Assembly (NCBI GenBank): GCA_027030245.1
Contig: JALVFE010000040.1
Span: forward strand, 1-64,000
Direction: 5' to 3'
DNA from: Melioribacteraceae bacterium
GTDB lineage: Bacteria; Bacteroidota; Ignavibacteria; Ignavibacteriales; Melioribacteraceae
DNA length: 64,000 bases
Shown piece after piece: positions 3,224 through 19,676 of the stretch. A model generated the notes under the pieces. It ran no database searches. It saw only the letters and a program-made list of their open reading frames with translations, and had not been told where the DNA came from. Each line of letters starts with the position of its first letter. The first letter of the stretch is position 1. A program made the position numbers and the translations under genes.

Positions 3224-3231
3224 AATTTAAT

Positions 3232-6868: not shown

Positions 6869-8172
6869 TATTTTATGATTTTATATATCTGATAACTTAG
6901 TAAAAAAAAATGTACACACATAAATACTGTGTAAATAGATAAAGTTTGATAAGGATCATAAGACAATGAATATGAAATATAAAATGAACTTATCACCAAA
7001 CCAGTGCGATATATACTTGTTTTCAAATATTTTGATTGTTTGTTATATAACAAAAAAAGTTTTGTTAGAGGTGTTGTAATAAATTCAAGCAATAAATATA
7101 TTGATAAGATTCTGGTAAATTCACCAGCTTGTATCCATTTCGAACCAAATGCAAAACTAAATGTTGAGGGTGAAAACAAAAGTATAATAAAAGTAAATAA
7201 ATTAAAAATAATTAGCTTATAAAGTACTGATTTAGTAACGGCAAATACTTGTTTTTTTTCTCTAATACCAATTCTAGCAATTTCAGCATAATAAGCTAGT
7301 GATGCAGTTTTACCAAATAATTGTAAAGGAACACTAATTATCATCAACGCCAAGCCTAATTGTCCCGAATAATCAGGCCCAAATTGATAAGCAAAATATA
7401 GAATGGGAACCTTCGAAGTAAAAACAAGTAATAAATCAGATGGCATATTGAATAGCGGAAAATTTTTATAATATTTAAGGAGAAAAAACTGATACTTTAT
7501 AGACAAAGTAGATATGTTCTTTAATATATCTTTAATGAATATTCTTAATAAGGATATACCCCCCCCCATCTTATGGGCAGTCTCTCCTATAACTAAGCCC
7601 ATAGATTTATATCCCGTTAAGCCTAATACTATTTGGATAATCACCGAAATTGAACTTCGCCATACACCTGTCTTAGCAATTGCGCCAAATTTTAATTTCC
7701 TTGAAGCCCAATTTGTTAATAATTCATATAAGGCTGCCCCCATTATCGCCAAAATGAGCAACCACCAATATTCTGAAATTTCAACAATATTTAGTAAGTT
7801 AAATATAAAATTACCACTTATAACAAAAAATAAAGCAAGCAAGCTACCAAGCACTATTGCAATGATAAATCCCGTGCTTAATAGATTAAATGCTAAAATA
7901 TCATTTTTGGGTAATGGTATTGCAAATGAATATCGTAATGTAGAAAATGGTAACAGTATAAATATTGTAGAACTAAACACTGCTAAAACACCAAAATCAG
8001 CCGGTGAATAAATTCTGGTAATAATTGGATATGAAGCAAAACCAATAAGCTTTGAAATAATTGAACCAGAAGCTAAAATACTCATGTTTTTGAAGATACT
8101 TCCAGTGCTTCCGCTACCAAATATTTTAATTATTTGATATTTTACTTTTTTTAATACTTCTTTTAGATTCAA
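6868..8172 (-). CDS. Polysaccharide flippase, Wzx/MATE-like
   Basis: This 434-residue membrane protein has twelve or more hydrophobic segments. It starts with a cytoplasmic leader and then NMSILASGSIISKLIGFASY and PIITRIYSPADFG, the classical opening of Wzx-type flippases. It would move lipid-linked repeat units across the inner membrane and is paired with the polymerase that follows it. A second flippase is at 38650-40107. Upstream lie gene fossils rather than an active promoter-proximal gene. Confidence 0.85.
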   Translation of the reverse strand: MNLKEVLKKVKYQIIKIFGSGSTGSIFKNMSILASGSIISKLIGFASYPIITRIYSPADFGVLAVFSSTIFILLPFSTLRYSFAIPLPKNDILAFNLLSTGFIIAIVLGSLLALFFVISGNFIFNLLNIVEISEYWWLLILAIMGAALYELLTNWASRKLKFGAIAKTGVWRSSISVIIQIVLGLTGYKSMGLVIGETAHKMGGGISLLRIFIKDILKNISTLSIKYQFFLLKYYKNFPLFNMPSDLLLVFTSKVPILYFAYQFGPDYSGQLGLALMIISVPLQLFGKTASLAYYAEIARIGIREKKQVFAVTKSVLYKLIIFNLFTFIILLFSPSTFSFAFGSKWIQAGEFTRILSIYLLLEFITTPLTKLFLLYNKQSKYLKTSIYRTGLVISSFYISYSLSYDPYQTLSIYTVFMCVHFFLLSYQIYKIIK

Positions 8173-8252
8173 AATTGCGAGCTGTATTTTAATATTAGAA
8201 AAAACAATAAAATTATCGTTCGTATTACTAAAAATTCATATTAAACTTAATG

Positions 8253-8357
8253 TTACAAAACTGATTTTTTACTTATTAGCAAAATGGGTTTAGGTATTAT
8301 CTCAGTAAAAGGTCTTAATCTTGTTCCCAAACCACCTGCTAGTATTACTGCTTTCAT
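8253..8357 (-). pseudogene. Fossil N-terminus of a sugar-1-phosphate nucleotidyltransferase
   Basis: From ATG 8357 the minus strand reads MKAVILAGGLGTRLRPFTEI and IPKPIL, then LISKKSVL and TAA (8253-8255). The GGxGTRLRPxT...PKP signature is the nucleotide-binding loop of RmlA/mannose-1-phosphate guanylyltransferase enzymes and cannot arise by chance. The remaining residues (about 200 or more) of such an enzyme are missing. It is therefore a broken gene, cut exactly where the AT-rich Wzx/Wzy cluster begins. Confidence 0.8.
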
Positions 8358-8375
8358 GTAAATCCCTGTTTTTAT

Positions 8376-8510
8376 TCAAAAATTTATAAAATTATTTATC
8401 TTATCCACAACATATTCAATTTGTTCACCGGTTAATTCCGGATAAATCGGCAAAGCAAGCGAATGCTCTGCGGCAAAATCAAACAACCTATAGTAAAGAT
8501 CATAATCCAT
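8376..8510 (-). pseudogene. Fossil C-terminus of a DegT/DnrJ-type sugar aminotransferase
   Basis: The minus strand from ATG 8510 reads MDYDLYYRLFDFAAEHSLAL, then PIYPELTGEQIEYVVDKI, ending at TGA 8376-8378. This matches the last residues of the complete aminotransferase at 14742-15905 (HSLALPVYPELSGEQIEYVV). The DNA shares a run of about 27 identical bases around 8403-8429. Only the last tenth or so of the gene remains. It is either a partial duplicate of that gene or the end of a deleted paralogue. Confidence 0.8.
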
Positions 8511-8588
8511 TTTATTTACTTTTGGTTTTTCAAATTTTTCAATATTAATTATAACATTTTGCCTTTCGCCTTTTACCTATCTACTTTT

Positions 8589-9182
8589 TTAACTATTTAT
8601 TTCAACAACCTTCCCGTCTTCAAATTTATATTTTATACCCGTTCTTGGCGAAACGAATATACCGTTCTCATCGAATTTCATTTTTTCACCTGCTTCGGAG
8701 TACCACCCTATTATTCGTGCGGGGTTACCTACCACAAGCGCAAAATCGGGAACATCTTTAGTTACCACGGCGCCGGCGCCAACCATGGCAAAACGTCCTA
8801 TTGTATTTCCACAAACGATTGTGCTGTTTGCTCCCAGCGACGCGCCTTCTTTTACAAGCGTTTTAATATAGAATTCGGAGCCTACTTGCGGGTATTTACT
8901 GCGTGGGTTTAATATATTTGTAAATACCATCGAAGGTCCGCAGAATACATAGTCTTCAAGCGTTACACCTTCGTAAACGGAGACGTTGTTTTGTATTTTA
9001 ACGTAGTTTCCAATAGTTACGTTATTTCCAACGTTCACGTTCTGACCGAGTACACACTTTTTACCTATTTTAGCTCCGGATTGCACATGTGAAAAATGCC
9101 AGATTTTTGTTCCTTCTCCAATTTCCACCCCTTCGTCAACAACCGCGTGGGGATTAACGTAGTAATCGTTTTTTGTTTCCAT
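8589..9182 (-). CDS. wbpD: UDP-2-acetamido-3-amino-2,3-dideoxy-glucuronate N-acetyltransferase (WbpD/WlbB-like)
   Basis: The 197-residue left-handed beta-helix enzyme opens with NPHAVVDEGVEIGEGTKIWH and FSHVQSGAKIGK. It contains the family stretch GPSMVFTNILNPRSKYP and GASLGANSTIVCG, and ends in VVGNPARIIGWYSEAGE. These are the hallmarks of WbpD/WlbB, which acetylates the 3-amino group of the nucleotide sugar with acetyl-CoA. WbpB- and WbpE-like enzymes follow upstream at 10597 and 14742, but separated by repeats. Base composition changes here from the very AT-rich 1-8.2 kb block to that of the rest of the window. Confidence 0.88.
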   Translation of the reverse strand: METKNDYYVNPHAVVDEGVEIGEGTKIWHFSHVQSGAKIGKKCVLGQNVNVGNNVTIGNYVKIQNNVSVYEGVTLEDYVFCGPSMVFTNILNPRSKYPQVGSEFYIKTLVKEGASLGANSTIVCGNTIGRFAMVGAGAVVTKDVPDFALVVGNPARIIGWYSEAGEKMKFDENGIFVSPRTGIKYKFEDGKVVEINS

Positions 9183-9330
9183 ATTTTACCTGCGTTTTTG
9201 TTTTATGTTTTAATATGAATTAGAATATTATGTTCTTTTTAGATCCCGAAACAAGTTCGGGATGACAGGTTCTATTCAATCCGCCGGAGGCGTAGGAATG
9301 ACGGCTAAAAATTCCAAATGACCAATGACA
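9183..9330. repeat. Intergenic palindromic repeat and low-complexity text
   Basis: The palindrome ATCCCGAA-ACAAG-TTCGGGAT lies at 9243-9263, preceded by TAG and followed by GACAGG. It is the simplest form of an interspersed element repeated many times up to 22.8 kb. A second part (TCCGCCGGAGGCG, 9280-9292) is another arm seen in the composite copies. The text then passes into the TGACCAATGACAATTGACC type. No gene is seen. Confidence 0.75.
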
Positions 9331-9735
9331 ATTGACCGGTGACGATTGACTGATGACCAATTCTTGCTTAATGGTAAGGTCAAGGTTAAGGTTAAGGTCA
9401 AGGGTAAAGTTTGTTTTTGAATGTTTTAATAATTTTATTTAAATCCAGGTGAATATTTTCTAATAAAGTATCCAATAAATCATAGTCAGATTTTTTAATA
9501 TAACCAACTCTTTTTCCATATTCCAAGTGACTCCGGGTTTCGGTAATGGAGCCTCTTGCATAATATAAAAAATTTATTTTATCCGCAGTATGGCTTCTTC
9601 CATATGATTCAGCTATGTTTGCAGAAATTGACCTCGGCCTCAGCCTTAACCTCATCCTTAGCCTTAGCCTTAAAAATTCTCTGACTTCCAGTTTCTTCAT
9701 TCATTCTTCTTTACAAATCCTCTGTTCCTTCCAAA
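9331..9735 (-). mobile_element. Four-helix-bundle cassette, copy 1 (deleted)
   Basis: The unit consists of a hexamer array on the low side (AAGGTC/AAGGTT, about 9373-9406), the gene, an inverted hexamer array on the high side (CCTTAG/CCTCAT, about 9628-9675) and a conserved outer segment (9676-9735) shared with copies 2 and 3. The left outer text, from about 9331 (GACCGGTGACGATTGACTGA), is shared with copy 3 only. About 190 bases covering the start and first third of the gene are missing compared with copy 2. The element type is unnamed; calling it mobile is inference from three copies in identical orientation and arrangement. Confidence 0.6.
9398..9700 (-). pseudogene. Four-helix-bundle protein gene fused to a hexamer array
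   Basis: From SISANIAESYGRSHTADK onward the 100-residue ORF matches the C-terminal two-thirds of the intact copy at 11988-12356. The first third is replaced by translated repeat, LRLRLRMRLRLRPR, after a start at ATG 9700. The deletion joins the CAATT next to the array with the ATTTCTGCA inside the gene. The first helix and the VWKDA motif are lost. The stop (TGA, 9398-9400) lies inside the first hexamer of the downstream array. If translated it would give an Arg-Leu repeat, but a decayed gene is more likely. Confidence 0.75.
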
Positions 9736-9992
9736 TAACAAATCCCAAATTCCAAATTCCAAATAACAAACTACAAATGATCATTAACCAATTCCCAATG
9801 ACAAAATGTGTCACTCCGCTGGAGTTTATAGTTTATATTGTTATATTGTTTTATAACCACAGATTCGCTCAGATTTTACCACAAACTAATCCGCAAAGAC
9901 GGGTTATCACAGAAAGGATATTTTCATTTATTTTTTTTTTAAAAATTTGTGATCAATCTGTGATCAATCTGTGGAAATCTGTGGTTTCTCTT
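9736..9992. repeat. Intergenic repeats with a long inverted pair
   Basis: The stretch begins with AAATTCCAAATAACAAA text. It then has the short hairpin ACTCC-GCT-GGAGT (9813-9825) of a repeat also found near 12.65, 18.38, 20.39 and 20.58 kb. Next comes AACCACAGATT (about 9855), whose inverted partner AATCTGTGGTT is at 9976-9986, with T- and A-rich text between. No gene is seen; the reading frames here are spurious. Confidence 0.7.
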
Positions 9993-10373
9993 TTAATTAA
10001 TAAACCTCTTAATACCTTGTTTAAGATCCTTTACATTAAAGTTTATCAGCAAACCAATTTTTGTGTTTGACAATTTCATGTATGTTAATATTTGTGCAAT
10101 GTGAACATCATTTATTGTTTCAACTGATTTTAATTCTACTATTACAGAATTTTCTATCATTAAATCGATTCTATATCCTACTTCTAATTTTATACCTTTG
10201 TACACTACTGGCAATGCTTTTTGTCTTTCCACCTTGTATCCTTTTGATTCCAAATCATAAGCTAAACATGCTTCGTAAGTCGATTATAATAAACCGGGCC
10301 CCAATTCGCTATGTATTTTATACGCGCATCCGATTATTTCATATGTAATGTTATTTATTTCTTCTTCGTTCAT
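9993..10373 (-). pseudogene. GxxExxY-family protein with one in-frame stop
   Basis: The full frame from ATG 10373 reads NITYEIIGCAYKIHSELGPG, LL, then TAA at codon 30 (10284-10286), STYEACLAYDLESKG and so on. In the family that position is the Glu of the GLLExxYE motif, so a single GAA-to-TAA change has broken the gene. The rest is intact and has the PD-(D/E)xK-like residues VGYRIDLMIENSVIVELKSV. The shorter frame from 10253 would lack the conserved start. Inverted 11-base repeats flank the gene (9976-9986 and 10385-10395). The function of the family is not established; a nuclease-like fold is suggested. Confidence 0.85.
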
Positions 10374-10596
10374 GTTTATTTTCTAACCACAGATTCTCTC
10401 GGATTTCAACACAGATTATCACAGAAAGAAATTCTATTTTACTACGACTCCCGTCCATACGGTGGTAGAATTAAATTCCAAATGTCAAATTCCAAGTTCC
10501 AATTGACCATTGACTATTGACCAGTGACAAATGACAATATCCCAATGACTAATGACCAATTTCCCAATGACCAAATTCCAATACTCACGCCCGTTA
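10374..10596. repeat. Intergenic repeats upstream of the GxxExxY gene
   Basis: AACCACAGATT (10385-10395) starts a repeat with CTCGGATTT and CACAGATTATCACAGAAAG, seen in other spaces of the window. It is followed by TTCCAAATGTCAAATTCC and TGACCATTGACTATTGACC text up to the WbpB-like gene. No gene is seen. Confidence 0.7.
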
Positions 10597-11589
10597 TTAA
10601 CCGGTTACGGCGGTCTTTTTAAGTTTTTCGGTAGCTTCTTCCAATATTTCCAATACTTTAAGTGCGTGTTTTCCGTCGGTACGCGGAGTTTTATCATTCA
10701 CCACACAATCATAAAAATGAAGATGCTCTTCCGTGAGAGGCATCTTTTCGGGGAATTTCAATAAGAATACCCCTTCGTCAAAAACCTCCAGTCTGCCTTG
10801 ATTATCTCTGAATCCTTTCGGATAAAATCTTAATTTATTTTCTTTTATGCTGTCTTCGAATACAAACATACCTTGTTCGCCTATCACAACCAATTTTTGC
10901 TCTTTAAAAGGATTCAACCAACTCACAAAAATATGTGCTTTAATATTTCCCGGATATTCCAAATACGTTAAAGTAGTATCTTCAATATCGCTTTGTAAAT
11001 AAGCCGCTCCCTTTGCATCGATGGATACGGGATCTTTTCCCGTCAGAAATTGAATCATGGAAATATCATGCGGTGCAAAACTCCATAAAATATTTTCTTC
11101 TTGACGTATTGAACCCAAATTCAATCTGTTACTGTAAATATATTGTATTTTACCCATCATACCCCGGTCTATCAATTCTTTCATTTTAAGAACCGCGGGA
11201 TGATAAAGTAAAACATGCCCAACCATAATTTTCACGTTATTCTCTCCGGCTAATTCCAACAATACCTTAGCATCTTCCGACACCAAAGTGATAGGTTTTT
11301 CTATCAATACGTGTTTGCCCGCATTAATCAGTTGTTTTGCTACGTCGAAATGGGTTTCGGCGGGTGTGGCAACTATTGCGGCAGAAATGTTTTTATCGCT
11401 CAAAATTTCGTTCAAATCGGTAGTAAATTTAATATTATTATTTACTGCTTTTACTGTTTTTTCCGCTTGCGGAGAAAAATCGACAACGGTAATATTTTGC
11501 GGATTTAAGATTGACGCTGCGGTTTTAACATGGTTTTTACCCCATCTTCCCGCACCGATAATTGCGATTTTTAAGTCGGCGCTTTCCAT
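10597..11589 (-). CDS. Gfo/Idh/MocA oxidoreductase, UDP-sugar 3-dehydrogenase (WbpB/GnnA-like)
   Basis: The 330-residue protein has an N-terminal Rossmann fold with IAIIGAGRWGKNH near residue 9, the EKPI motif with the catalytic lysine near 98, and a C-terminal substrate domain with LWSFAPHDISM. It would oxidise C3 of the UDP-sugar with NAD, the step before transamination by the WbpE-like enzyme at 14742-15905. Its closest named relatives are WbpB/WlbA and the UDP-GlcNAc 3-dehydrogenase GnnA; the sequence alone does not decide between them. WbpD downstream favours the uronate pathway. Confidence 0.82.
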   Translation of the reverse strand: MESADLKIAIIGAGRWGKNHVKTAASILNPQNITVVDFSPQAEKTVKAVNNNIKFTTDLNEILSDKNISAAIVATPAETHFDVAKQLINAGKHVLIEKPITLVSEDAKVLLELAGENNVKIMVGHVLLYHPAVLKMKELIDRGMMGKIQYIYSNRLNLGSIRQEENILWSFAPHDISMIQFLTGKDPVSIDAKGAAYLQSDIEDTTLTYLEYPGNIKAHIFVSWLNPFKEQKLVVIGEQGMFVFEDSIKENKLRFYPKGFRDNQGRLEVFDEGVFLLKFPEKMPLTEEHLHFYDCVVNDKTPRTDGKHALKVLEILEEATEKLKKTAVTG

Positions 11590-11949
11590 TTGTTCTCCGA
11601 TAATTAAATTTTCAGATATTTATTTTTCAGCTTCGTGAGCCGGTAAACCTGTAGTTTATAAATTGTAACAGAATATTTAATTGGAATTTATTATTGTAAA
11701 GTATTGATTTATCTATTCATCCCCACAGCTTCGCCCAGTCCCTCACATGCGGTTTGGGTTTGGGTTTAAATAAAACGTTACAAACATAGTAATTTTTAAA
11801 ATATTTTGTAGGGAAAAATTTATTGTTTTTTAAAGAGTTATGTAATTCAGTTAAAGAAAAATTTCAATTTGGTGAATTTTGAGGATATTTTTTAACCACA
11901 GAGAACCCAAAGGGAACCACTGAGGACACGAAGAAAATCAAATTCAAAA
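11590..11949. other. Non-coding stretch with little recognisable
   Basis: About 360 bases follow the start of the WbpB-like gene on its upstream side. The text is AT-rich, with a GGTTTGGGTTTGGGTTT run near 11750-11768. A remnant of the AACCACAGAGAACCCAAAGGG type lies at about 11894-11935. I see no gene, and no promoter I would trust. The WbpB-like promoter should lie in the first part. Confidence 0.6.
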
Positions 11950-12480
11950 TGACCAATGACCAGTTAAGGTTAAGGTCAAGGTTAAGGTTAAGGGTAAAGT
12001 TTGTTTTTGAATGTTTTAATAATTTTATTTAAATCCAGATGAATATTTTCTAATAAATCATCCAATAAATCATAGTCGGATTTCTTAATATAACCGACTC
12101 TTTTTCCATATTCTAAGTGACTCTGAGTTTCGGTAATGGAGCCTCTTGCATAATATAAAAAATTTATTTTATCCGCAGTATGGCTTCTTCCAAACGATTC
12201 GGCTATGTTTGCAGAAATACTAAGAGCAGCTCTCCGGATTTGTGAAGTAAATCCATAGTCTTCTTTTTTAGGCAATTTTTCAGTTAAATTAAAAATTTTT
12301 TCCGCTACTTCTATAGCATCTTTCCAAACCGGCATCTCTTTAAATGAATTGTACATCAATTGACCTTAGCCTCATCCTCAACCTAAGCCTCATCCTCAAC
12401 CTCAACCTTAAAAATTCTCTGACTTCCAGTTTGTTCATTCATTCTTCTTGACAAGTCCTCTGTTCCTTCGAAATGACAAA
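11950..12480 (-). mobile_element. Four-helix-bundle cassette, copy 2 (intact)
   Basis: The order on the plus strand is an AAGGTT/AAGGTC array (about 11963-11995), the gene, an inverted array of CCTTAG/CCTCAT/CCTCAA hexamers (about 12360-12412), and a conserved outer segment (12413-12480; TCTGACTTCCAGTTT, GTCCTCTGTTCCTTCGAAAT). TAAGGTCAA of one array and TTGACCTTA of the other are exact inverse complements. In RNA many further hexamers pair, with A-U or G-U at the first position. The transcript could therefore form a long stem with the gene in the loop. Confidence 0.65.
11988..12356 (-). CDS. Four-helix-bundle protein (23S rRNA intervening-sequence protein family)
   Basis: This is the intact copy, 122 residues from ATG 12356; a TTG one codon earlier is also open. 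MPVWKDAIEVAEKIFNLTEK, QIRRAALSISANIAESFGR and YYARGSITETQSHLEYGKR are the family signature (Pfam PF05635, TIGR02436). The family was first known from genes inside 23S rRNA intervening sequences, and its biochemical role is unknown. The Shine-Dalgarno-like AAGG seven bases upstream and the stop TAA (11988-11990) both lie in the flanking hexamer arrays. Copies 1 and 3 are broken, so this one may be the source or the only active one. Confidence 0.88.
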   Translation of the reverse strand: MYNSFKEMPVWKDAIEVAEKIFNLTEKLPKKEDYGFTSQIRRAALSISANIAESFGRSHTADKINFLYYARGSITETQSHLEYGKRVGYIKKSDYDLLDDLLENIHLDLNKIIKTFKNKLYP

Positions 12481-12957
12481 TTCAAAACGTGAGACGTAAG
12501 ACGTGAAACGTAGAGACGTAAAACGTAAGGGGGATGTAATTTTTTCGTCCCGGTAACAATTTTTTCATTTGCGAATTAGCGACTAACGGATAAAAAATCC
12601 CAAATTACAAATGACCAGTGACCAATTCCCAATGACTAAATGTGTCACTCCGCTGGAGTTTTAATTTTGTGTTAGAATGCTTGTTCTATAAATATGTCAC
12701 GCCTAACGGCGTTTGCAGGTTAAAATAGAGAGTTCTCTTTATATCCCGCAACAATCCGCCGGAAGCATACGGGTTGAAAAGTCATAAATTCCAAATGACC
12801 AATTACTAATGACAATATCGTGTTCAATGCGTGTTTAATCTGTGTAAATCCTCCTCGGCGGACAGGTCTTTGGTTTCTTTTTTTCACACAGAGCGCGAAG
12901 AAAAATAATAAATTACTCAGAAAAAAGCTTTTCACAATAAGTCGAAAATAAGTGAAC
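12481..12957. repeat. Intergenic repeat field between the cassette and the AbiEii gene
   Basis: The stretch contains ACGTGAGACGTAAGACGTGAAACG text (12487-12530) and TGACCAGTGACCAATTCCC text. It also has the two-hairpin repeat ACTCC-GCT-GGAGT (12647-12659) plus ACGCC-TAAC-GGCGT (12699-12712), and a degraded composite palindrome (12741-12775). A last copy of TTTAATCTGTGTAAATCC with CGGCGGACAGG lies at 12836-12880. The open frame at 12720-12935 crosses these repeats and is not a gene. Confidence 0.7.
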
Positions 12958-13608
12958 TCATTTATCGGTTTTCAAATACTCAACAACGGCTTTTTCAATA
13001 AAACTAAAAACCGTTTTCCTATCCACTTCAAAATCCGGCATAAATGATATCGGGAAATCATCAACATCTTCGTAGGCAAGTAAAGCCCTTAAGTAAAGCC
13101 CAACATCGAACTCCGAATGCTTTTTTGTCGCCAGATCTATTATTTCAGCCAGTTTATATTTTTGAAGTATAAAATAAACATCTACGTAGTCTTTATAAGT
13201 AGCTCTATAGAGTGCCAATAACTTCATCACACCGATTTCGGGTATTTGAGCTAAATTAAAAAACTCTGTTTCAACTAATGGAAGAAAATTAACATACGGT
13301 AACTTAAACAAAGATATTTTTACAGAATCATCTAAGATAAAAGTTAGTGTATCCAGCTCATTCTGAATAACGGAAATCTTTGCCTCATAAAAAGTTTCTT
13401 TAACAATATTAATAAGTTTTTGATTACTAAATTCTTTAGCCGTAAAAAAATCGAAATCATCTGATTTTCTGTGACCAAGTTGAAGAGCTAAACCGGTCCC
13501 TCCGGCAAGATAAAAGTCATTTTTAAATACTGATAATTTATCGAGCATTCCAAATCTCTTTTTATCTAAGACCGTGTAAATTAAATTATTTTTTCCAAAG
13601 CTCTTCAT
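12958..13608 (-). CDS. AbiEii/AbiGii-type nucleotidyltransferase, putative toxin
   Basis: The 216-residue protein carries YLAGGTGLALQLGHRKSDDF and DFF near residues 32-55, the nucleotidyltransferase motif of the AbiEii toxin family (GG...H R xSxDxDxF). AbiEii-type toxins are nucleotidyltransferases that stop growth, some by modifying tRNA ends. The upstream gene overlaps it by 23 bases and belongs to a family that often precedes such enzymes, so the two probably form a toxin-antitoxin pair. The frame looks intact. It is an island in repeats between the WbpB- and WbpE-like genes. Confidence 0.85.
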   Translation of the reverse strand: MKSFGKNNLIYTVLDKKRFGMLDKLSVFKNDFYLAGGTGLALQLGHRKSDDFDFFTAKEFSNQKLINIVKETFYEAKISVIQNELDTLTFILDDSVKISLFKLPYVNFLPLVETEFFNLAQIPEIGVMKLLALYRATYKDYVDVYFILQKYKLAEIIDLATKKHSEFDVGLYLRALLAYEDVDDFPISFMPDFEVDRKTVFSFIEKAVVEYLKTDK

Positions 13609-13846
13609 GCTTAACTAATTTTTGCCAAAATAGATAATTTTTTTTGCTTAAAGATTTTTTCCCCTTAGTCGCCAGATATTCCATAACTTCATTTCTTGAA
13701 AATAAATCAAATACAAAACGAATTACGGATAAATCACTTAACGTAAGAAATCTGTTCATAATATAACTTCTATGATTTATCAAATCCAATTTACTGAAAT
13801 CACAATCCCAAAAGTATTTTTTAAATTTACTAGGTAAAGTATTCAT
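13586..13846 (-). CDS. DUF6922-like small protein, putative antitoxin of the AbiEii pair
   Basis: The 86-residue protein has FWDCDFSKLDLINHRSYIMN and RFLTLSDLSVIRFV. This is the FWDxDFxxLDxxxHxxxIxxRxLxxGD pattern of DUF6922 proteins, which commonly precede AbiEii-type nucleotidyltransferases. Its end overlaps the toxin gene by 23 bases. The role as antitoxin is inferred from position only. Confidence 0.7.
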   Translation of the reverse strand: MNTLPSKFKKYFWDCDFSKLDLINHRSYIMNRFLTLSDLSVIRFVFDLFSRNEVMEYLATKGKKSLSKKNYLFWQKLVKHEELWKK

Positions 13847-14022
13847 TTTTTAAAGTTTTGTTTATTTAAAACAGTTCTATATCTTTTAGTTAAATTTATA
13901 AATCCTGCTTTATACGGTATTATTTAAACACAAAGTGAAATGTTTTTATTGTTTTATTGCTGTTTGATGTTACTACCATCCAACTGTGGTAGAAATGCCA
14001 GTAATGAAATTCCAAATTCCAA
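13847..14022. other. Non-coding stretch
   Basis: This AT-rich text contains a short CACAAAGTGAAATG piece and the pair CTACCATCCAACTGTGGTAG (13972-13991), a 6-base stem, followed by repeat text of the TTCCAAATTCCAATT type. A similar CTACCGTCCGCACAGTGGTA occurs at 17051-17070. No gene is seen. Confidence 0.5.
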
Positions 14023-14301
14023 TTATTCTGCGAACAATCCGTGTTTAATCTGTGGTAATCCGTGGTTTCCCAAAAGAACACAAATGAGAAAAATTTCAAA
14101 TAACAAATGACCATCAATCACTATTTGAATTGATTCGAACAAACCATATCTCATTATCCATTGTAATTGTAAATCATTCTTAATTTCCGCCAGTTCATTC
14201 TTACTTCTGAACTTTTCCAATTCACTTATATTTCTTTCCAAAATGCTTAATCTTTCAAGCATAATTCCTTTTTCCGAATTTCTTTGATGAAATACGTTCA
14301 T
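14023..14301 (-). pseudogene. HepT toxin gene truncated by intergenic repeat text
   Basis: MLERLSILERNISELEKFRS and LQLQWIMRYGLFESIQIVID match the first two helices of HepT/DUF86 toxins. At about 14112 the homology stops, and the frame runs on through intergenic repeat (GGTCATTTGTTATTTG, then CCACGGATTACCACAG). The HEPN catalytic R-x4-H-x-Y motif, which lies in the missing half, is absent, so no active RNase can be made. The start overlaps the preceding MntA gene by about 47 bases. Compare the complete pair at 20672-21491. Confidence 0.78.
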
Positions 14302-14674
14302 AAAAAGTATCCCTAACGGATTTCCTTAGTTTTTCCGTATCGAAATAATATAAAAATGCTCTTCTTTTGAATTCAATAAAAAGTTCATTATCTCTTACAA
14401 ATATAATTTTATGTTTTGTAGCAATTCGGTAAGCAAGAGCCGGGTTTTTTTTATAAATATCTTTCAGTTCCAATAAATCGATTTTCTTTTTTGTGATTAT
14501 TTCCAAATCGTATATAATTTTACCTAATAAAAGTAAATCCGGATTTTCTTCACAATATATCCCGATATCCAAATCACTCATATTTCCCGCTTTGCCGTTC
14601 ACATAGGAACCGAAAAATAATGCAAAGTTTATAAAGTCATATTGCTCTAAATATTTTTTTATTTCATTTTCCAT
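14255..14674 (-). CDS. MntA-like nucleotidyltransferase (antitoxin of a broken HepT pair)
   Basis: The 139-residue protein has FGSYVNGKAGNMSDLDIGIY near residue 21, a perfect GS-x10-DxD minimal nucleotidyltransferase motif. In HepT/MntA systems the MntA enzyme adds AMP groups to a Tyr of the HepT toxin. Here the partner downstream is truncated, which would leave an antitoxin without a toxin. The C-terminus (SSKKFGKRNYA) may be altered by the same event. The frame is otherwise intact. Confidence 0.82.
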   Translation of the reverse strand: MENEIKKYLEQYDFINFALFFGSYVNGKAGNMSDLDIGIYCEENPDLLLLGKIIYDLEIITKKKIDLLELKDIYKKNPALAYRIATKHKIIFVRDNELFIEFKRRAFLYYFDTEKLRKSVRDTFYERISSKKFGKRNYA

Positions 14675-14741
14675 TTATGAATCGCAAGAATTTTTAATTG
14701 TAAAATTATTTATACAATTTTCATTTGCAAGAAAATATTTT

Positions 14742-15905
14742 CTACTTCAAAAACTCTTTAATCTTCTCCACAACATATTCAATTTGTTCACCGCTTAGTT
14801 CAGGATAAACCGGTAAAGCAAGAGAATGCGCCGCGGCAAAGTCGGCTACAGGATAATCATCCTTAGAACTTTCCAATCCATTGAAACATTCCTGTTTGTG
14901 AAACGGAACCGGATAATAAATTTCCGTTGCTATGTCGTTTTCTTTTAAGAACGCTTTCAGTTCGTCTCTTTTATTAACTCTGATAACATATTGGTTGTAA
15001 ATATGATACTCTCTAATCCCATTCTCCTTATATACGGCTTTGGGGAGTAAAACTTTGTTATTATCGTCAAATTCCGTTATGCCTTCCGCTTCCGCAAGAC
15101 CGGATTCAATAAATGCTTGTGTATATAAACCTGCGTTTTTTCTTCTGCCTTCCGACCAATCCTTTAGATGCGGAAACTTGACGTTCAACACTGCCGCTTG
15201 AATGGCATCGAGCCGGAAATTACCGCCGATAATTTTGTGATAATATTTCGGTTTTCCGCCATGAACTCTTAATATTCTCAGCTTCTCTCCCAATTCTTCA
15301 TCCATTGTAACTACCATACCGCCGTCGCCGAATCCGCCGAGGTTTTTACTCGGGAAAAATGAAAAACATCCTATATCCCCGATCGTTCCTACATAACTGC
15401 CGTCTTTGTATTGGGCGGTTATTGCTTGTGCACCGTCTTCTATAACCTGTAAATTATGTTTTTTGGCTATCTCCATTATGGGTTTCATATCGGCGCTTTG
15501 TCCGTATAGATGAACCGGAATAATTGCTTTGGTTTTCCCGGATATTTTTTCTTCTATTTTAGCCGGATCAATATTAAAAGTAACGGGATCGATATCAACA
15601 AATACCGGTATTGCGTTCATTCGCGCAACCACACCGGCTGTGGCAAAAAAGGAATATGTCGGTACTATCACTTCGTCGCCTGGTTTTATATCCAATGCCA
15701 TCAAGGCGATCAGCAGAGCGTCTGTCCCGGAAGATACTCCAACCGCTTTTTTAGCGCCGATAGCCTTGGCTATGGTTTCTTCAAGTTTTTGAACTTCGGG
15801 ACCGAGAATAAAATATTGCGACTCGGCTACTTTTAGCAAAGCTTTGTTAATTTCTTCTTTAATCGTTTGATATTGAGCTTTGAGGTCTAATAACGGTACG
15901 TTCAT
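14742..15905 (-). CDS. wbpE: UDP-sugar 3-aminotransferase, DegT/DnrJ/EryC1 family (WbpE/GnnB-like)
   Basis: The protein has 387 residues. It starts NVPLLDLKAQYQTIKEEINK and contains GVSSGTDALLIALMALDIKP, the cofactor site DGAQAITAQY, and SFFPSKNLGGFGDGG with the PLP-binding lysine. It would transfer an amino group to the 3-keto sugar made by the WbpB-like enzyme, and the WbpD-like acetyltransferase would follow. All three are on the same strand but separated by about 1.4 kb and 3.2 kb of repeats and toxin modules. A fossil of the end of a related gene is at 8376-8510. GnnB, which serves lipid A, is the alternative assignment. Confidence 0.86.
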   Translation of the reverse strand: MNVPLLDLKAQYQTIKEEINKALLKVAESQYFILGPEVQKLEETIAKAIGAKKAVGVSSGTDALLIALMALDIKPGDEVIVPTYSFFATAGVVARMNAIPVFVDIDPVTFNIDPAKIEEKISGKTKAIIPVHLYGQSADMKPIMEIAKKHNLQVIEDGAQAITAQYKDGSYVGTIGDIGCFSFFPSKNLGGFGDGGMVVTMDEELGEKLRILRVHGGKPKYYHKIIGGNFRLDAIQAAVLNVKFPHLKDWSEGRRKNAGLYTQAFIESGLAEAEGITEFDDNNKVLLPKAVYKENGIREYHIYNQYVIRVNKRDELKAFLKENDIATEIYYPVPFHKQECFNGLESSKDDYPVADFAAAHSLALPVYPELSGEQIEYVVEKIKEFLK

Positions 15906-16230
15906 TTTTTTCTCCGTAGGATTAAAGTTAAATATTTAGTTTATTAATCTTTGTATTAAATTATATTTTATTAGAACTGCATAAAGATTCAAACATGCCG
16001 GGTTGAGGGGGCAAGAAAAATCCCCAATTTTCAAAAATAAATGTTATATAAATTGTAAGATCTAAATTTTATATTTCTAATCGTTCTCTTTAGATCCCGA
16101 AATAATCCGCCGTGGCGGACGGGATGACAAGATCTTCATTTTTTCATACAAACTGCCGTAAGTGGACGGAATAACAATAAAGAAATTCCAAATAACAAAT
16201 TCCAAATTCCAAACAAAAAAAACTACCAAT
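15906..16230. repeat. Intergenic stretch with a nested palindrome
   Basis: The first 170 bases are AT-rich and should hold the promoter of the aminotransferase gene. A composite element follows. ATCCCG (16094-16099) pairs with CGGGAT (16120-16125), and inside it TCCGCC (16106-16111) pairs with GGCGGA (16114-16119). TTCCAAATAACAAATTCC text follows. No gene is seen. Confidence 0.7.
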
Positions 16231-16892
16231 GACCGGTGACGATTGACTGATGACCAATTCTTGATTCTTGATTAATAGTAATCTCGAGGTTAAGATTAAG
16301 GTTAAAGTCAAGGTTAAGGTTAAGGTCAAGGTTAAGGTCAAGGTTAAGGTCAAAGTTAAGGTCAAAGTCAAGGGTAAAGTTTGTTTTTGAATGTTTTAAT
16401 AATTTTATTTAAATCCAAATGAATATTTTCTAATAAAGTATCCAATAAATCATAGTCAGATTTCTTTATATAACTAACTCTTTTTCCATATCTAAGTGAC
16501 TTTGAGTTTCGGTAATGGAGCCTCTTGCATAATATAAAAAATTTATTTTATCCGCAGTATGGCTTCTTCCAAACGATTCGGCTATGTTTGCAGAAATGCT
16601 AAGAGCAGCTCTCCGGATTTGCGATGCAAATCCATAGTCTTCTTTTTTAGGCAATTTTTCAGTTAAATTAAAAATTTTTTCTGCTACTTCTATAGCATCT
16701 TTCCAAACCGGCATATCTTTAAAAGAATTATACATCAATCAACCTCAACCTTATCCTCAACTTTGACCTCAGCCTCAACCTCATCCTTAGCATTTGCCTT
16801 AGCCTTAGCCTCAACCTCAAAAATTCTCTGACTTCCAGTTTCTTCATTCATTCTTCTTTACAAGTCCTCCGTTCCTTCGAAATGACAAATTA
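16231..16892 (-). mobile_element. Four-helix-bundle cassette, copy 3 (longest arrays)
   Basis: This copy has the longest arrays: AAGGTT/AAGGTC/AAAGTC from about 16285 to 16377, and the inverted CCTCAA/CCTTAG side from about 16738 to 16820. Both are roughly twice as long as in copies 1 and 2. The outer text GACCGGTGACGATTGACTGA (16234-16253) is shared with copy 1, and the conserved segment 16821-16892 with both others. The long low-side array reads as a Thr-Leu repeat in an unrelated frame. Confidence 0.65.
16368..16735 (-). pseudogene. Four-helix-bundle gene with a one-base deletion
   Basis: From ATG 16735 the frame matches copy 2 nearly residue for residue (MPVWKDAIEVAEKIFNLTEK and onward) as far as TQSHL. 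A T is missing near 16490 (CCATATCTAAG against CCATATTCTAAG in copy 2), which shifts the frame, and translation ends at 16466. Beyond the shift the original frame still reads YIKKSDYDLLDTLLENIHLD up to TGA 16368-16370, again inside the array. The damage is therefore recent. A GAGG seven bases before the ATG comes from the array. Confidence 0.85.
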
Positions 16893-17101
16893 CAATTACA
16901 AATGACCAATGACGAATGACAAGTGACCAATAACAATTTTCCAATGACCAATGATCTATTAATCTGTGGGGATCTGTGGTTCTTTATTAACCACCATGAA
17001 CACAAAGGGTAAAATTATTATGGGTTATTGTTATATTTCTGTTCACTGCTACTACCGTCCGCACAGTGGTAATTTTATTTTGTGTTTGATAGAAACTTTT
17101 T
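16893..17101. repeat. Intergenic repeats before cysQ
   Basis: The text TGACCAATGACGAATGACAAG is followed by ATTAATCTGTGGGGATCTGTGG with inverted TTAACCACCATGAACAC (about 16959-17003), then the small stem around CTACCGTCCGCACAGTGGTA (17051-17070). No gene is seen. Confidence 0.6.
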
Positions 17102-17905
17102 TTAGATACTCTTTACAAGAAAAGAACCGTTTAAAACATTCTCTTTATTGAATTGTAATCCTTCTATTTCCGCACCGGCTGCTTTGGCAATAGCATATCC
17201 GGCGCCAACATCCCATTCGTTTGTGGGACCGTGGCGATAATACAAATGAGCGGAACCGTCTGCAACCCTGCAGAATTTAATTGAACTGCCTGCCGATATC
17301 GTTTCGGTAACACCGTATTTTTCAAAGACCGTCTCTTCTTCGGGGAAAGCATGAGATCTGCTTCGTACCGCTATTACCCCGTTTGACTTATCTTTATTGA
17401 CCGATATTCTTCTGTATTTATCGCCTTTGAATTGCATAAATGCACCCAATCCGGTTCCCCCGAAATAAAGCGTACCCGATTTAAGATAGGGCGTTTCAAA
17501 ATCAAGAGAATCTTCCGCCGGTTCGGAATTATTTTCCAGAGCTGGAGAATAAATTACACCAAGCACTGCTTCATTATTTTCTATAAGAGCAATGTTGACC
17601 GTAAATTCATCATTTTTCTTAATAAATTCCTTCGTTCCGTCCAAAGGATCGACAAGCCAGAATTTTTCCCAGTTTTTCCTTTCTTCATAAGGGATATCCC
17701 GGCCTTCTTCGGATAAAACCGGAATACCGGGGAATTCTTTTTTTAATCCTTCCACAATGATATCATGCGATGCACGGTCGGCTAAAGTTAAAGGTGAATT
17801 ATCCGATTTCATTTCTACTCCGAAATCCGCCGAGTGATAAATGTCCATTATCGTTTCACCGGCTTTAACGGCAATAGGGATTATTTTTTCCAAATACGTT
17901 TTCAT
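17102..17905 (-). CDS. cysQ: 3'(2'),5'-bisphosphate nucleotidase
   Basis: The 267-residue enzyme of the inositol monophosphatase superfamily has the metal site SEEG (65-68), DPLDGTKEF (86-94) and, near the C-terminus, NEWDVGAGYAIAKAAGAEI. The DGTKEFI form is typical of CysQ, which hydrolyses 3'-phosphoadenosine 5'-phosphate to AMP and so removes the by-product of PAPS use. cysC and sat are on the same strand about 8 kb away, beyond the toxin modules. The gene was probably once next to them. Confidence 0.9.
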   Translation of the reverse strand: MKTYLEKIIPIAVKAGETIMDIYHSADFGVEMKSDNSPLTLADRASHDIIVEGLKKEFPGIPVLSEEGRDIPYEERKNWEKFWLVDPLDGTKEFIKKNDEFTVNIALIENNEAVLGVIYSPALENNSEPAEDSLDFETPYLKSGTLYFGGTGLGAFMQFKGDKYRRISVNKDKSNGVIAVRSRSHAFPEEETVFEKYGVTETISAGSSIKFCRVADGSAHLYYRHGPTNEWDVGAGYAIAKAAGAEIEGLQFNKENVLNGSFLVKSI

Positions 17906-18522
17906 TAATTTTCCTTATTGAGATTGTGATAAGTAAAAGTAAAGTTTGGGTAGATGCTTCCAATTTGTTTTTGTAGCCGAAAGTTTACGGAATGCAAGAT
18001 TTATTTGTTTATTTTAGATCCCGAAACAATCCGCCGTGGAGGACAGGATAACAAGTCTTATTAACTGTCATGCTGTCCCGAATGCCTTCGGGATCAGCAT
18101 CTGATCTAAATTATAAGTTTTTATTAGATCCCGAAACGAGTTCGGGATGACAAGTTCTTTATACTGTTATGGAATATGTCATGCCAAACTTGGCTCGGCA
18201 TCTGATTAAAGTTACGGGTTCATTTTAGATCCCAAAATAGTCCACCGAAGTGGGAGGAAGGACAATAAAGAAATTTCAAATTACAAATTCCAAATGACCA
18301 ATTACAAACGACATTTTCCCAATAACCAAAGACGAATGACAATTTCCCTGTGACAAATGACTAATAACAAAATGTATCACTCCGATAGAGTTTATATTTT
18401 ATATTGATATATTGCTTTATAAATATATCACGCCAATGGCGTTGGGGGAATTTCTTTTCATAGCTTTTAGGATGAAGTTAATCTAACTGCCGGTGTGAAT
18501 AATTAAAATGGAACTTATAGTC
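17906..18522. repeat. Array of interspersed palindromes, about 600 bases without a gene
   Basis: At least five elements follow each other. They are a composite ATCCCGAAACAATCCGCC copy (18018-18053); ATGCTGTCCCGAA-TGCC-TTCGGGATCAGCAT (18070-18101, 13-base stem with one bulge, reverse orientation); ATCCCGAA-ACGAG-TTCGGGAT (18128-18148); the small GCCAA-AC-TTGGC (18183-18194); and a degraded composite (18227-18273). After TGACCAATTACAAACGAC text comes the two-hairpin repeat (about 18375-18445, ending CACGCCAATGGCGTT). Such structures would strongly affect any transcript running from 19.2 kb towards cysQ. Confidence 0.75.
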
Positions 18523-18912
18523 TTAACTTAAAAGATTTTTAATATTTGAAAAAATCATTTTTGCAAATTGATAAAATTTTTTCGCTTCTTCATAACCAGG
18601 TTTCCCGTTAGGTAACAAACCTATATCACTGGGGTATCTTGACTCAATATAAACCTCGTCCAACCGTTTAATTAATTGTAAATCAATGGTAAAATTCAGG
18701 TAGTTTTTTATTTTACTTAACAAAGTTTCAAGTTTATGCATTTTAATAATTTCAATTTCTTTTTCTTCCAGTATGGCTTTAAAACTTTTTTCTATTGCTT
18801 GTTGAGCGTGAAATGCAACCATATTTGTCAAATGTTTTACGTCTAAAATTTCTTCTATTACATCAAGATCATCTTCGGCAGCTTTTAACCACTCCTTAGT
18901 CATTTCTTTCAT
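18523..18912 (-). CDS. HEPN-domain protein of a HEPN/MNT pair
   Basis: The 129-residue helical protein has EWLKAAEDDLDVIEEILD, VAFHAQQAIEKSFKAIL and ESRYPSDIG, which match the PF05168 HEPN group. The canonical R-x4-6-H RNase motif is not present in the usual form, so it may not be an RNase. The gene begins 17 bases inside the end of the MNT gene, an arrangement typical of HEPN/MNT toxin-antitoxin pairs. Which partner is the toxin cannot be read here. Confidence 0.82.
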   Translation of the reverse strand: MKEMTKEWLKAAEDDLDVIEEILDVKHLTNMVAFHAQQAIEKSFKAILEEKEIEIIKMHKLETLLSKIKNYLNFTIDLQLIKRLDEVYIESRYPSDIGLLPNGKPGYEEAKKFYQFAKMIFSNIKNLLS

Positions 18913-19240
18913 ATAAAACTTTTCCCCTTTTTAATATTGTCTTTGAAAACATACTTTTCATTTCTATGAATTTTCTATACATTGGCTTTGAATAAACTAT
19001 TATATCTATTGGTACTTGAGCGATTATTTCGGTAAGCGCATTCGATACTTTTAGGTATAAATCGCTTTTCTCTTTGTAATTGGAGGGGTAATAATCATCA
19101 TTTGTTACAACAATAATGTCTATATCACTATCTTTTGTGGGAATTCCGTGAGCATAGGATCCAAAAAGAATAATTTTATACGGATTTATTGAGTTTTTCA
19201 ATTTTTCCGTTATTTGCGTGATGTATTTTTCATTGTCCAT
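18896..19240 (-). CDS. MNT-type nucleotidyltransferase
   Basis: The protein has 114 residues with ILFGSYAHGIPTKDSDIDII, a perfect GS-x10-DxD minimal nucleotidyltransferase motif near residue 26. It is the upstream gene of the pair with the HEPN protein. The frame is intact. The surrounding spaces on both sides are repeat-rich. Confidence 0.85.
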   Translation of the reverse strand: MDNEKYITQITEKLKNSINPYKIILFGSYAHGIPTKDSDIDIIVVTNDDYYPSNYKEKSDLYLKVSNALTEIIAQVPIDIIVYSKPMYRKFIEMKSMFSKTILKRGKVLYERND

Positions 19241-19676
19241 AGTATTCCGATTTTTGTAGACTTATAATGCAACCCGATTAAATAATATTCAACCGTTAAT
19301 AATATAAAGTTATAAAAAAGGAAAATTCTAAATCAAAAAAATTTTTTCAAGATGTTTCAGATACCAAAAATTAAAAGTGCCGGATTAGTTCTTAATCCAT
19401 GAAATCGGTAACTTAATCTATTGAACTACCATCAGACAAGTTTTTCAAAAATAATTTCTCTTTTTAGAATCCGTTCAACTCCGTAGGAGTGGAACATAAA
19501 AACTTCAATTCTCATTCGTGAATTAGCGGATGTCTCTTGGATTTCCGGCTGTACGAACCAAAAAGGATCGTACAATTCGATTAATATATCTTGTTTTACT
19601 CTTATACCACAATCTAAATTTTTTCCTATCGATTGTTGGATATTTGCACATTTTAAAATTTTTACAGTTAATCACA
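19241..19676. other. Non-coding stretch, possible tRNA fossil
   Basis: About 435 bases lie between two nucleotidyltransferase modules. On the minus strand 19375-19438 reads GATGGTAGTTCAATAGATTA, then AGTTACCGATTTCATGG and ends AATCCGGCAC. This recalls the D-arm and 3' part of a tRNA but lacks pairing in acceptor and T arms. ACTCC-GT-AGGAGT (19469-19481) is a small hairpin. The remainder shows nothing I recognise. Confidence 0.4.

What the first reader, a model, noticed from the sequence alone, without database searches (positions are those of the whole stretch)
11963..12412. Hexamer arrays supply both the ribosome binding site and the stop codon of the gene they flank
In copies 2 and 3 the AAGG or GAGG seven bases before the ATG belongs to the upstream array. 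In all three copies the stop codon (TAA 11988-11990, TGA 9398-9400, TGA 16368-16370) is the first hexamer of the downstream array (CCCTTAA or CCCTTGA on the coding strand). The arrays are therefore not passive neighbours: the gene needs them for start and stop of translation, and pairing of the arms would hide the ribosome site. This suggests structure-controlled translation.
Basis: partly seen in the sequence, partly recalled or inferred. Interest (0 to 1): 0.55.

Follow-up and report, generated by a model that had tools for sequence, protein, structure and literature searches.

The report
Gene cassette ending in mirrored repeats
A small gene of unknown function sits between two mirrored runs of a short repeated DNA word, and the same design, with a word that goes with the gene's own subfamily, recurs in many bacterial phyla and seems tied to short repeats scattered through the same genomes, so it may be an unrecognised kind of tiny mobile element.

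Summary
The letters are as described, but only one of three copies is intact, and the reading (arrays supply RBS and stop; structure-controlled translation) does not generalise. The gene is PF05635 (IVP). Of 170 such genes, 111 have inverted-complementary flanks (1.8% of cross-locus pairs; 17 of 365 control genes), mostly arrays of a 7-nt word that differs between loci. SD in the arm: 14 of 112; stop touched: 16; neither: 85. Arm mismatches show no G.U excess over A.C (97 vs 109). Cassettes (~485 nt) sit between co-directional genes, arm edge a median 2 nt from the upstream stop; at Bosea nuoC|nuoD, of 41 genomes 3 carry one, 16 are empty, 22 hold other sequence. The word follows the protein, not the genome (different genomes, >=60% identity: 29 of 59 pairs; same genome, <45%: 1 of 37). 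Genomes with IVP genes are enriched in scattered arrays of the word (Luteimonas family 19/29 vs 4/31; window relatives, matching IVP type, 7/15 vs 2/82). The window's AAATNNC heptamers match a second IVP gene on the same contig. Best reading: IVP genes and cognate repeats form a REPIN/RAYT-like system. Mobility and mechanism are unproven.

The parts
11988..12356 (-). Copy 2: intact IVP gene (122 aa), ATG at 12354-12356, stop TAA 11988-11990
   Evidence: PF05635 120.9 bits (cut-off 33.8), TIGR02436 121.8 (cut-off 24); self match
12364..12410 (-). Copy 2: 5' hexamer array RAGGYY (coding strand); AAGG at 12364-12367 lies 7 nt before the ATG
11963..11993 (-). Copy 2: 3' inverted array (coding strand CCCTTAACCTTAACCTTGACC...); includes the stop codon
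9401..9655 (-). Copy 1: remnant matching residues 38-122 (88% identical); N-terminal part missing
   Evidence: Pfam 64.6 bits on the open frame 9398-9700
9629..9673 (-). Copy 1: 5' array
9375..9403 (-). Copy 1: 3' array with TGA 9398-9400
16371..16735 (-). Copy 3: frameshifted gene (residues 1-87 and 78-122 in two frames)
16739..16820 (-). Copy 3: 5' array
16287..16373 (-). Copy 3: 3' array (TRF: 15.8 units over 16287-16381); TGA 16368-16370 not in frame with the start of copy 3
9307..9360 (+). Scattered heptamer array of the AAATNNC/CCAATGA type, no IVP gene inside; further ones near 9729-9805, 10471-10583, 11930-11962, 12586-12640, 12786-12815, 16160-16260, 16880-16965, 18269-18371, 20521-20574, 21659-21751, 22696-22895
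   Evidence: AAATTCCAAATGAC with up to 2 mismatches: 30 matches vs 2.6 expected; 29 on the + strand between 9.3 and 22.9 kb, 1 on the - strand at 40.1 kb. Same unit as the arms, read by eye, of the IVP gene at contig C40:120012-120392
12485..12529 (+). Solitary ACGTRAR array; same unit as the arms of the IVP gene at C21:213018-213365 of this genome
   Evidence: TRF; L005/L343 arms; match by eye

Best explanation
The finding is one member of a widespread cassette: a single IVP gene (PF05635, four-helix-bundle protein) bounded by inverted arrays of a 6-8-nt word. SHOWN: the arms match each other within a locus; the word goes with the protein subfamily and not with the host genome; the cassette (~485 nt) mostly lies between co-directional genes, starting about at the upstream gene's stop codon; at one junction both empty and filled sites exist among genomes drawn from one genus; genomes with IVP genes (in one test: of the matching type) are enriched in scattered arrays of the word, some as gene-less inverted pairs. 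INFERRED: the arrays are recognition sites of the IVP protein (a pentameric ring in published work), the cassette is or was mobile, and solitary arrays and inverted pairs are non-autonomous derivatives that spread with its help, much as REPINs do with a RAYT. rRNA intervening sequences (same ORF, terminal inverted repeats) would be the case of insertion into an rRNA operon. Start and stop signals in the window's arrays would follow from this hexamer's letters and the small room in the cassette.
For: Inverted arms: score >=13 in 111 of 170 own pairs vs 1.8% of cross-locus pairs; control genes in the same loci 17 of 365. Relatives 52/83, named GTDB genomes 54/77, viral contigs 5/9. Best lag 7 in 65 and 14 in 23 of 111. 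Word tracks protein: pairs of 60-80% identity share it (>=12) in 38 of 71, >=80% in 7 of 7, below 45% in 46 of 4711; across phyla, >=60% identity 4 of 14 pairs score >=15 vs 4 of 2264 below 45% (L123 KSB1, L129 Desulfobacteraceae, L160 Nitrospirae share AGGCACA); same genome <45% identity 1 of 37, different genomes >=60% 29 of 59. Window subfamily has hexamers in Geomonas and Cloacimonadota (by eye). Position (neighbours on the same strand within 220 nt): arm edge to upstream stop median 2 nt (n=91), to next start 11 nt (n=85), insert median 485 nt (n=79); both neighbours co-directional 80 of 99 with arms vs 42 of 85 control triples. Bosea nuoC|nuoD: 16 of 41 unbroken, 3 with an IVP cassette. 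Scattered arrays: GGGANTCx3 >=10 hits in 19 of 29 genomes with IVP vs 4 of 31 without (p=4.3e-5); GTGANTC prediction, written in the same turn as the search: 4 of 4 named genomes are among the 9 of 60 with hits (p=2.6e-4); AAATNNCx3 >=6 in 7 of 15 genomes with the L350-type IVP vs 2 of 82 (p=1.5e-5; 7.7e-5 without G000).
Against: No transposition event, target-site duplication or excision product was seen. The IVP protein has no recognised nuclease or transposase domain, so it cannot obviously cut DNA. 59 of 170 genes show no arms at my threshold, the window's own copy among them (11.5), Geomonas L089 (9.5) and Winogradskyella L147 (8.5) too. Ten of 29 IVP-bearing genomes in the Luteimonas family have fewer than 10 GGGANTC hits, and array-rich genomes without an IVP hit exist (G152 59, G188 40, G197 28, G180 10). 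A strict look for the word in the fetched arms found it in 9 of the 29 genomes (all 9 with >=10 hits), but 10 of the other 20 also have >=10. G055 has seven RAGGYY hits without that IVP type. Hits of scattered arrays are overlapping windows and include each cassette's own arms (G162: one of its two GTGANTC hits); cut-offs for searches were set after seeing the counts; genomes share ancestry. Within-genus contrasts for AAATNNC: 4 for, 2 against, 3 ties. 22 of the 25 filled Bosea junctions hold no IVP gene, so that junction accepts insertions in general. Nine of 111 arms have reversed G/C polarity.
Confidence: 0.6

Rival explanations
1. RNA-level element: the arms pair in the polycistronic mRNA and the stem is cut by RNase III (or bound by IVP), as with rRNA intervening sequences; the arrays serve mRNA processing or autoregulation rather than DNA mobility.
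For: Same ORF and terminal inverted repeats as the Coxiella IVS, whose RNA is excised by RNase III (PMC4990558, abstract and passages); cassettes lie mostly co-directionally between genes; copy 2 folds better than shuffles; size similar (428-nt IVS; 485-nt median insert).
Against: No G.U over A.C excess between arms (97 vs 109). It does not explain scattered arrays of the same word away from the gene.
Confidence: 0.25
2. One reading: the arrays supply RBS and stop, and arm pairing switches translation of the gene.
For: True letter by letter in copy 2; SD in the array in orthologues L034-L036, stop in L035 and L036; upstream arms are G-rich on the coding strand in 101 of 111.
Against: Neither SD nor stop in the aligned arms in 85 of 112 loci; own SD in L039 and L042; no G.U excess.
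Confidence: 0.08
3. Host regulon: IVP is a resident regulator (DNA- or RNA-binding ring), the scattered arrays are its operators, and cassettes spread only vertically or with their operons.
For: Word-to-gene match across genomes; MacGregor 2015 suggested a TAACTGA-binding protein (PMC4679880, passages).
Against: Patchy presence, decayed copies (window copies 1 and 3), several IVP genes with different words in one genome (by eye), close protein-word pairs in different phyla.
Confidence: 0.15
4. Arrays first: ordinary slippage-made simple repeats between genes are hot spots into which IVP genes insert.
For: Heptameric repeats are over-represented in many bacteria, with little literature on them (PMC4692102, passages).
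Against: It predicts words typical of the genome, not of the protein; same-genome paralogues below 45% identity share the word in 1 of 37 pairs, relatives at >=60% in other genomes in 29 of 59. The 16 empty Bosea junctions carry no array.
Confidence: 0.07

Closest known systems
23S/16S rRNA intervening sequences with an S23/IVP ORF (Coxiella, Leptospira, CPR bacteria)
   Same: Same protein family; terminal inverted repeats; similar size; patchy and thought to be horizontally spread; long suspected to be mobile with the ORF as a mobility component (Ralph and McClelland 1993 as cited in PMC4990558)
   Different: Here between protein genes (no Rfam hit at window 8000-23500); ends are tandem arrays of a subfamily-specific word; the word is also scattered over the genome
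REPIN/RAYT systems (PMC3116915, abstract read)
   Same: A gene associated with repeats of the kind that is scattered over the genome, some as inverted pairs
   Different: Protein is a four-helix bundle, not a tyrosine transposase; repeats are tandem 6-8-mers, not palindromic REPs
Heptameric repeats of Xanthomonas/Nostoc (GGGAATC; PMC4692102) and of Beggiatoaceae (TAACTGA; PMC4679880)
   Same: The Xanthomonas word GGGAATC is the arm word of the IVP gene in Luteimonas (L128/L250) and some of its relatives; 70 and 75 inverted pairs were noted in two Xanthomonas genomes
   Different: 'Intervening', 'S23' and 'four helix' occur 0 times in either main text; I saw no link to IVP in the passages read
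Avd of diversity-generating retroelements
   Same: PF05635 resembles Avd (PMC10053308, passages)
   Different: I did not look for reverse transcriptase or template/variable repeats beside these cassettes

Membership tests
PF05635 / TIGR02436 protein family | Profile score above curated cut-off | tested here: met
   120.9 vs 33.8 and 121.8 vs 24 bits
rRNA intervening sequence (IVS) | Lies inside an rRNA gene | tested here: not met
   No Rfam match in window 8000-23500; 0 rRNA matches in the 20 of 80 named loci that I scanned
rRNA intervening sequence (IVS) | Terminal inverted repeats around an S23/IVP ORF | tested here: met
   Copies read; 111 of 170 loci (the window copy scores 11.5, under that threshold)
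rRNA intervening sequence (IVS) | Excised from RNA by RNase III | not testable with these tools
   Needs RNA data; the indirect test (G.U vs A.C) gave no signal
REPIN/RAYT | Gene encodes a REP-associated tyrosine transposase (RAYT) | tested here: not met
   Only PF05635 in Pfam, and TIGR02436 plus two PRK12275 subfamily models below their cut-offs in NCBIfam
REPIN/RAYT | Scattered non-autonomous repeats matching the gene's flanks | tested here: met
   GGGANTC and GTGANTC in the Luteimonas family, AAATNNC and, more weakly, RAGGYY in the window's relatives; gene-less inverted pairs in 4 of 8 regions read, which were picked for it
Insertion sequence / MITE | Transposase in the cassette and target-site duplication | tested here: not met
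   The one gene in the cassette is IVP; no duplication seen by eye at the three filled Bosea junctions
Diversity-generating retroelement | Reverse transcriptase with template and variable repeats | not tested
   Not searched

The most novel reading that the evidence does not exclude
Many heptameric (and hexameric, octameric) tandem repeats between bacterial genes are the cis sites, and often the non-autonomous offspring, of a so far unrecognised class of minimal mobile elements whose only protein is the four-helix-bundle IVP; each IVP subfamily reads and propagates its own 6-8-nt word without a known nuclease, possibly at highly expressed transcripts or with a borrowed polymerase or reverse transcriptase, and rRNA intervening sequences are its best-known members.
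Probability: 0.4. Interest if true: 0.92.

Novelty: new variant of a known kind. Interest (0 to 1): 0.8.

Why it matters
Two open questions meet: what PF05635 proteins do (a pentameric ring is published, function unknown), and where the over-represented heptameric repeats of bacterial genomes come from. A protein-to-word match makes both directly testable by binding assays and gene removal. It also bears on guilt by association: IVP genes were listed among genes of cas loci, e.g. between cmr3 and cmr2 (PMC3936711, passages); a cassette that settles in many kinds of operon (nuoC/nuoD, accB/accC, sdhA/sdhB, atpD/atpC, a tRNA cluster; my recognition of the neighbours) could explain that without a CRISPR function.

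Tried and rejected
Structure-controlled translation: G.U/A.C asymmetry absent; kept only as a minor rival. RNA fold of copy 2: z -2.63, but it cannot tell selection from mere inverted repetition. tRNA and rRNA surroundings: 58 of 60 named loci had no tRNA gene; the 20 loci scanned had no rRNA; so rRNA location is not the rule. Upstream G-richness as a signature of arms: 101 of 111, but also 40 of 45 among genes without detected arms, so uninformative by itself. Shorter flanks did not detect more arms (79-83 of 170 above the 99th cross-locus percentile for 80-220 nt). Literature: searches listed no paper that I recognised as linking PF05635 to such arrays; only 3 papers of the library hold PF05635, TIGR02436, 23S_rRNA_IVP or 'S23 ribosomal protein'. 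The library lacks most subscription papers, so this is not proof of novelty. Rows dropped: of 220 profile hits in 188 sources, 191 were full length; six without a usable start and exact duplicates were removed, leaving 177, of which 170 had at least 150 nt on both sides. The 80 named loci are the best 80 of 562 candidates, not a random sample. Neighbour genes were called by a simple longest-ORF rule (>=90 aa), so start positions are approximate. Phylum labels were set by hand from record titles; the window's relatives are unnamed and were counted as cross-phylum only against non-Bacteroidota, because I take them for Ignavibacteriales (inference). 'Luteimonas family' and 'Bosea genus' are the groups that the tool drew around L128's and L097's genomes; their members are unnamed.

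Full report
1. What is in the window. The gene at 11988-12356 (minus strand) is a PF05635 / TIGR02436 protein, '23S rRNA-intervening sequence protein', a four-helix bundle. But the match of copy 1 starts at residue 38 and copy 3 has a frameshift, so the named stop of copy 3 is not read from its start. Only copy 2 is intact, and the copies are duplicates (93-94% over the aligned blocks). The region lies among genes on the same strand (hexapeptide transferase, GFO/IDH/MocA oxidoreductase, AbiEii-type and Polbeta-type nucleotidyltransferases, DegT aminotransferase, inositol-phosphatase family). No Rfam family reaches its cut-off at 8000-23500.

2. The anatomy is general. I collected PF05635-like genes from the window's relatives, from named GTDB genomes (best 80 of 562 candidates) and from viral contigs. 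Of 170 full-length genes with flanks, 111 have an upstream flank that is inverted-complementary to the downstream flank at score >=13, against 1.8% of cross-locus pairs; the 99th cross-locus percentile is passed by 83 of 170. Control genes in the same loci reach 13 in 17 of 365. By group: relatives 52 of 83, named 54 of 77, viral 5 of 9, and the window copy itself misses (11.5; 0 of 1). The arms are short tandem arrays: the best lag is 7 in 65, 14 in 23, 8 in 16 and 6 in 4 of 111, against a flat spread for shuffled arms. The word differs widely between loci (e.g. GGGAATA, GTAGGGT, TTAGTAG, CAGTTGA).

3. In the 111 loci plus the window, an SD-like word overlaps the aligned arm in 14 of 112, the arm touches the stop codon in 16, both in 3, neither in 85. 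These are lower bounds, because aligned arms are shorter than arrays. L039 and L042 have their own SD. A sense-strand RNA stem under selection should tolerate G.U pairs more than A.C mismatches; the counts are 97 and 109 (p=0.44), and other thresholds give the same. Copy 2's RNA folds at -105 kcal/mol, z -2.63, as an inverted repeat should. Structure-controlled translation is thus unsupported as the reason for the arrays, though an effect in this locus is not excluded.

4. Where cassettes sit. Where both neighbours lie within 600 nt (149 of 170), both are co-directional for 80 of 99 genes with arms and 39 of 50 without, against 42 of 85 control triples. For same-strand neighbours within 220 nt, the outer arm edge lies a median 2 nt from the upstream gene's stop (n=91) and 11 nt from the next ORF start (n=85); the insert has a median of 485 nt (n=79; 10-90% 429-606). 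Reading translated neighbours (the gene names are my recognition) gives nuoC/nuoD in Bosea, accB/accC in Luteimonas, sdhA/sdhB in Winogradskyella (arms weak, 8.5), atpD/atpC in a Bacteroidota MAG, pyruvate dehydrogenase E1/E2 in Thiobacillus and fadB/fadA in Flavobacterium; L141 lies between tRNA-Pro and tRNA-Arg. A joined-flank query of nuoC|nuoD over 41 genomes drawn from the Bosea genus found the junction unbroken in 16 and interrupted in 25. Reading all 41 and testing with the profile shows an IVP cassette in 3 (G097, G112, G118), beginning right at the nuoC stop codon, and other sequence in 22, of which 20 encode a GGCLCG-containing frame. The 16 empty sites carry no array. No target-site duplication was evident by eye.

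5. The word belongs to the protein. Pairs of loci whose proteins are 60-80% identical share the word (arm score >=12) in 38 of 71, those at 80% or more in 7 of 7, those below 45% in 46 of 4711; with one arm reversed the counts are 0, 1 and 14. Across phyla, 4 of 14 pairs at >=60% identity score >=15 against 4 of 2264 below 45%: L123 (KSB1), L129 (Desulfobacteraceae) and L160 (Nitrospirae) share AGGCACA; Bosea L097 and Nostoc L137 are the fourth pair. The other 10 of 14 do not share a word. Among genomes with handles, paralogues of one genome below 45% identity share the word in 1 of 37 pairs (2 of 4 at 45-60%, 1 of 1 above), different genomes at >=60% in 29 of 59. By eye, the window's subfamily keeps hexamers in Geomonas (L089) and Cloacimonadota (L090, L091).

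6. The word is scattered through the genome. Luteimonas's arm word GGGAATC is the Xanthomonas heptamer of Rehm et al. 2015, who found 186 and 183 arrays and 70 and 75 inverted pairs in two genomes (PMC4692102, section 10 read; IVP terms absent). In 60 genomes of the Luteimonas family, PF05635 is present in 29. GGGANTCx3 gives >=10 hits in 19 of these 29 and in 4 of the 31 others (Fisher 4.3e-5, Mann-Whitney 3e-6). The word itself was found, by a strict string test of the fetched arms, in 9 of the 29 genomes, all 9 with >=10 hits; 10 of the other 20 also have >=10, several of them with near variants such as GGGATTCGTGATTC. From the arms I then predicted, in a note sent in the same turn as the search, that GTGANTC arrays would occur in G162, G167, G173 and G189; all four are among the 9 of 60 with hits (p=2.6e-4). 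In the places listed the middle letter agrees too (mostly GTGAATC in G173, GTGATTC in G162 and G189). G162 has only two hits, one its own arm, and G188 has 14 without an IVP hit. As a second system, the window's own scattered heptamers (AAATTCCAAATGAC: 30 matches against 2.6 expected) match the arms of another IVP gene on the same contig, C40:120012-120392, about 108 kb from copy 2 (53.3 bits). Among 97 relatives, 15 have this IVP type (E <= 1e-27, cut set at the break in the list; G004, G043 and G086 with internal stops, G054 partial). Of the 14 other than G000, 13 show inverted arms of an AAAT-containing word (L371 as AAATNCT, L369 weak at 11.0) and L376 none; these genomes may be AT-rich, which helps such matches. 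AAATNNCx3 gives >=6 hits in 7 of 15 of them and in 2 of 82 others (p=1.5e-5; 7.7e-5 without G000); with other cut-offs, >=1: 10 of 15 vs 22 of 82, >=3: 8 vs 4, >=10: 4 vs 0. In the window's genus, G000 with the gene has 141 hits; its three congeners, which lack this type, have 1, 1 and 0. For RAGGYYx4 the same comparison gives 3 of 5 against 3 of 92 (p=0.0013; 0.013 without G000; the partial G014 match was counted as absent), and G055 has seven such hits without the gene. Gene-less inverted pairs of arrays occur in 4 of 8 regions read, chosen because they looked paired (L352-L354, L357).

7. Reading. The plainest account is one system: an IVP gene bounded by its own repeats, set into operons, with solitary arrays and inverted pairs of the same word elsewhere. 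That is the logic of REPINs and RAYTs (PMC3116915, abstract), but with a four-helix bundle instead of a tyrosine transposase and tandem words instead of palindromes. Its relation to rRNA intervening sequences is close: same ORF, terminal inverted repeats (28-bp stem in Coxiella), size 428 nt, and a published guess that the ORF codes for a mobility component (PMC4990558, abstract and passages); IVP ORFs are also known in 16S and 23S insertions of CPR bacteria (PMC11270868, passages). The solved relatives 2gsc (XCC0516) and 2rld each have five chains; the first is described as a homopentameric ring of four-helix bundles (passages). That a ring reads a tandem word is my inference. How DNA would be cut or copied is unknown. 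Correlation of gene and word could also mean a regulator with many sites.

8. Limits. Genomes are mostly draft and related; scattered-array counts overlap and include the cassette's own arms; cut-offs on those counts were set after seeing them; 59 of 170 genes show no arms at threshold; array-rich genomes without an IVP hit exist (G152, G180, G188, G197). The named loci were picked by similarity to an alignment led by the window protein.

Noticed in passing
window 12361-12428 and 9629-9700 (minus strand): The 5' array is also open in another frame as (Leu/Met-Arg)n after an upstream ATG. In copy 1 this frame runs into the IVP remnant and makes a 100-aa ORF; in copy 2 it overlaps the IVP start (read by eye).
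   Followed up: no
L091 (Cloacimonadota), 3001-3490: The IVP gene of the window's subfamily is interrupted by an insert of roughly 130 nt.
   Followed up: no
L283-L306 (Bosea nuoC|nuoD): 22 of 25 filled junctions hold no IVP gene; 20 of them encode a GGCLCG-containing frame, so this junction accepts new genes.
   Followed up: partly
G181, L320: G181 is the only genome with many hits of the reversed control pattern (26 and 44), i.e. CTNAGGG arrays; the arms of its IVP gene contain CTCAGG(G) and CTAGGG. An unplanned agreement of word and gene.
   Followed up: partly
L355 (G166:C5:59700-60700): Three GGGAATC arrays repeat at 228-nt steps with a conserved spacer.
   Followed up: no
L348 (G000:C29:48288-48599): Another IVP gene of this genome, between a dihydrolipoamide acyltransferase end and a dihydrolipoamide dehydrogenase start (my recognition), with hexamer arms of reversed G/C polarity, by eye.
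   Followed up: no
window 12958-13846: AbiEii-type nucleotidyltransferase gene (PF08843) with a small ORF beside it, possibly a type IV toxin-antitoxin pair; next to the cassette.
   Followed up: no
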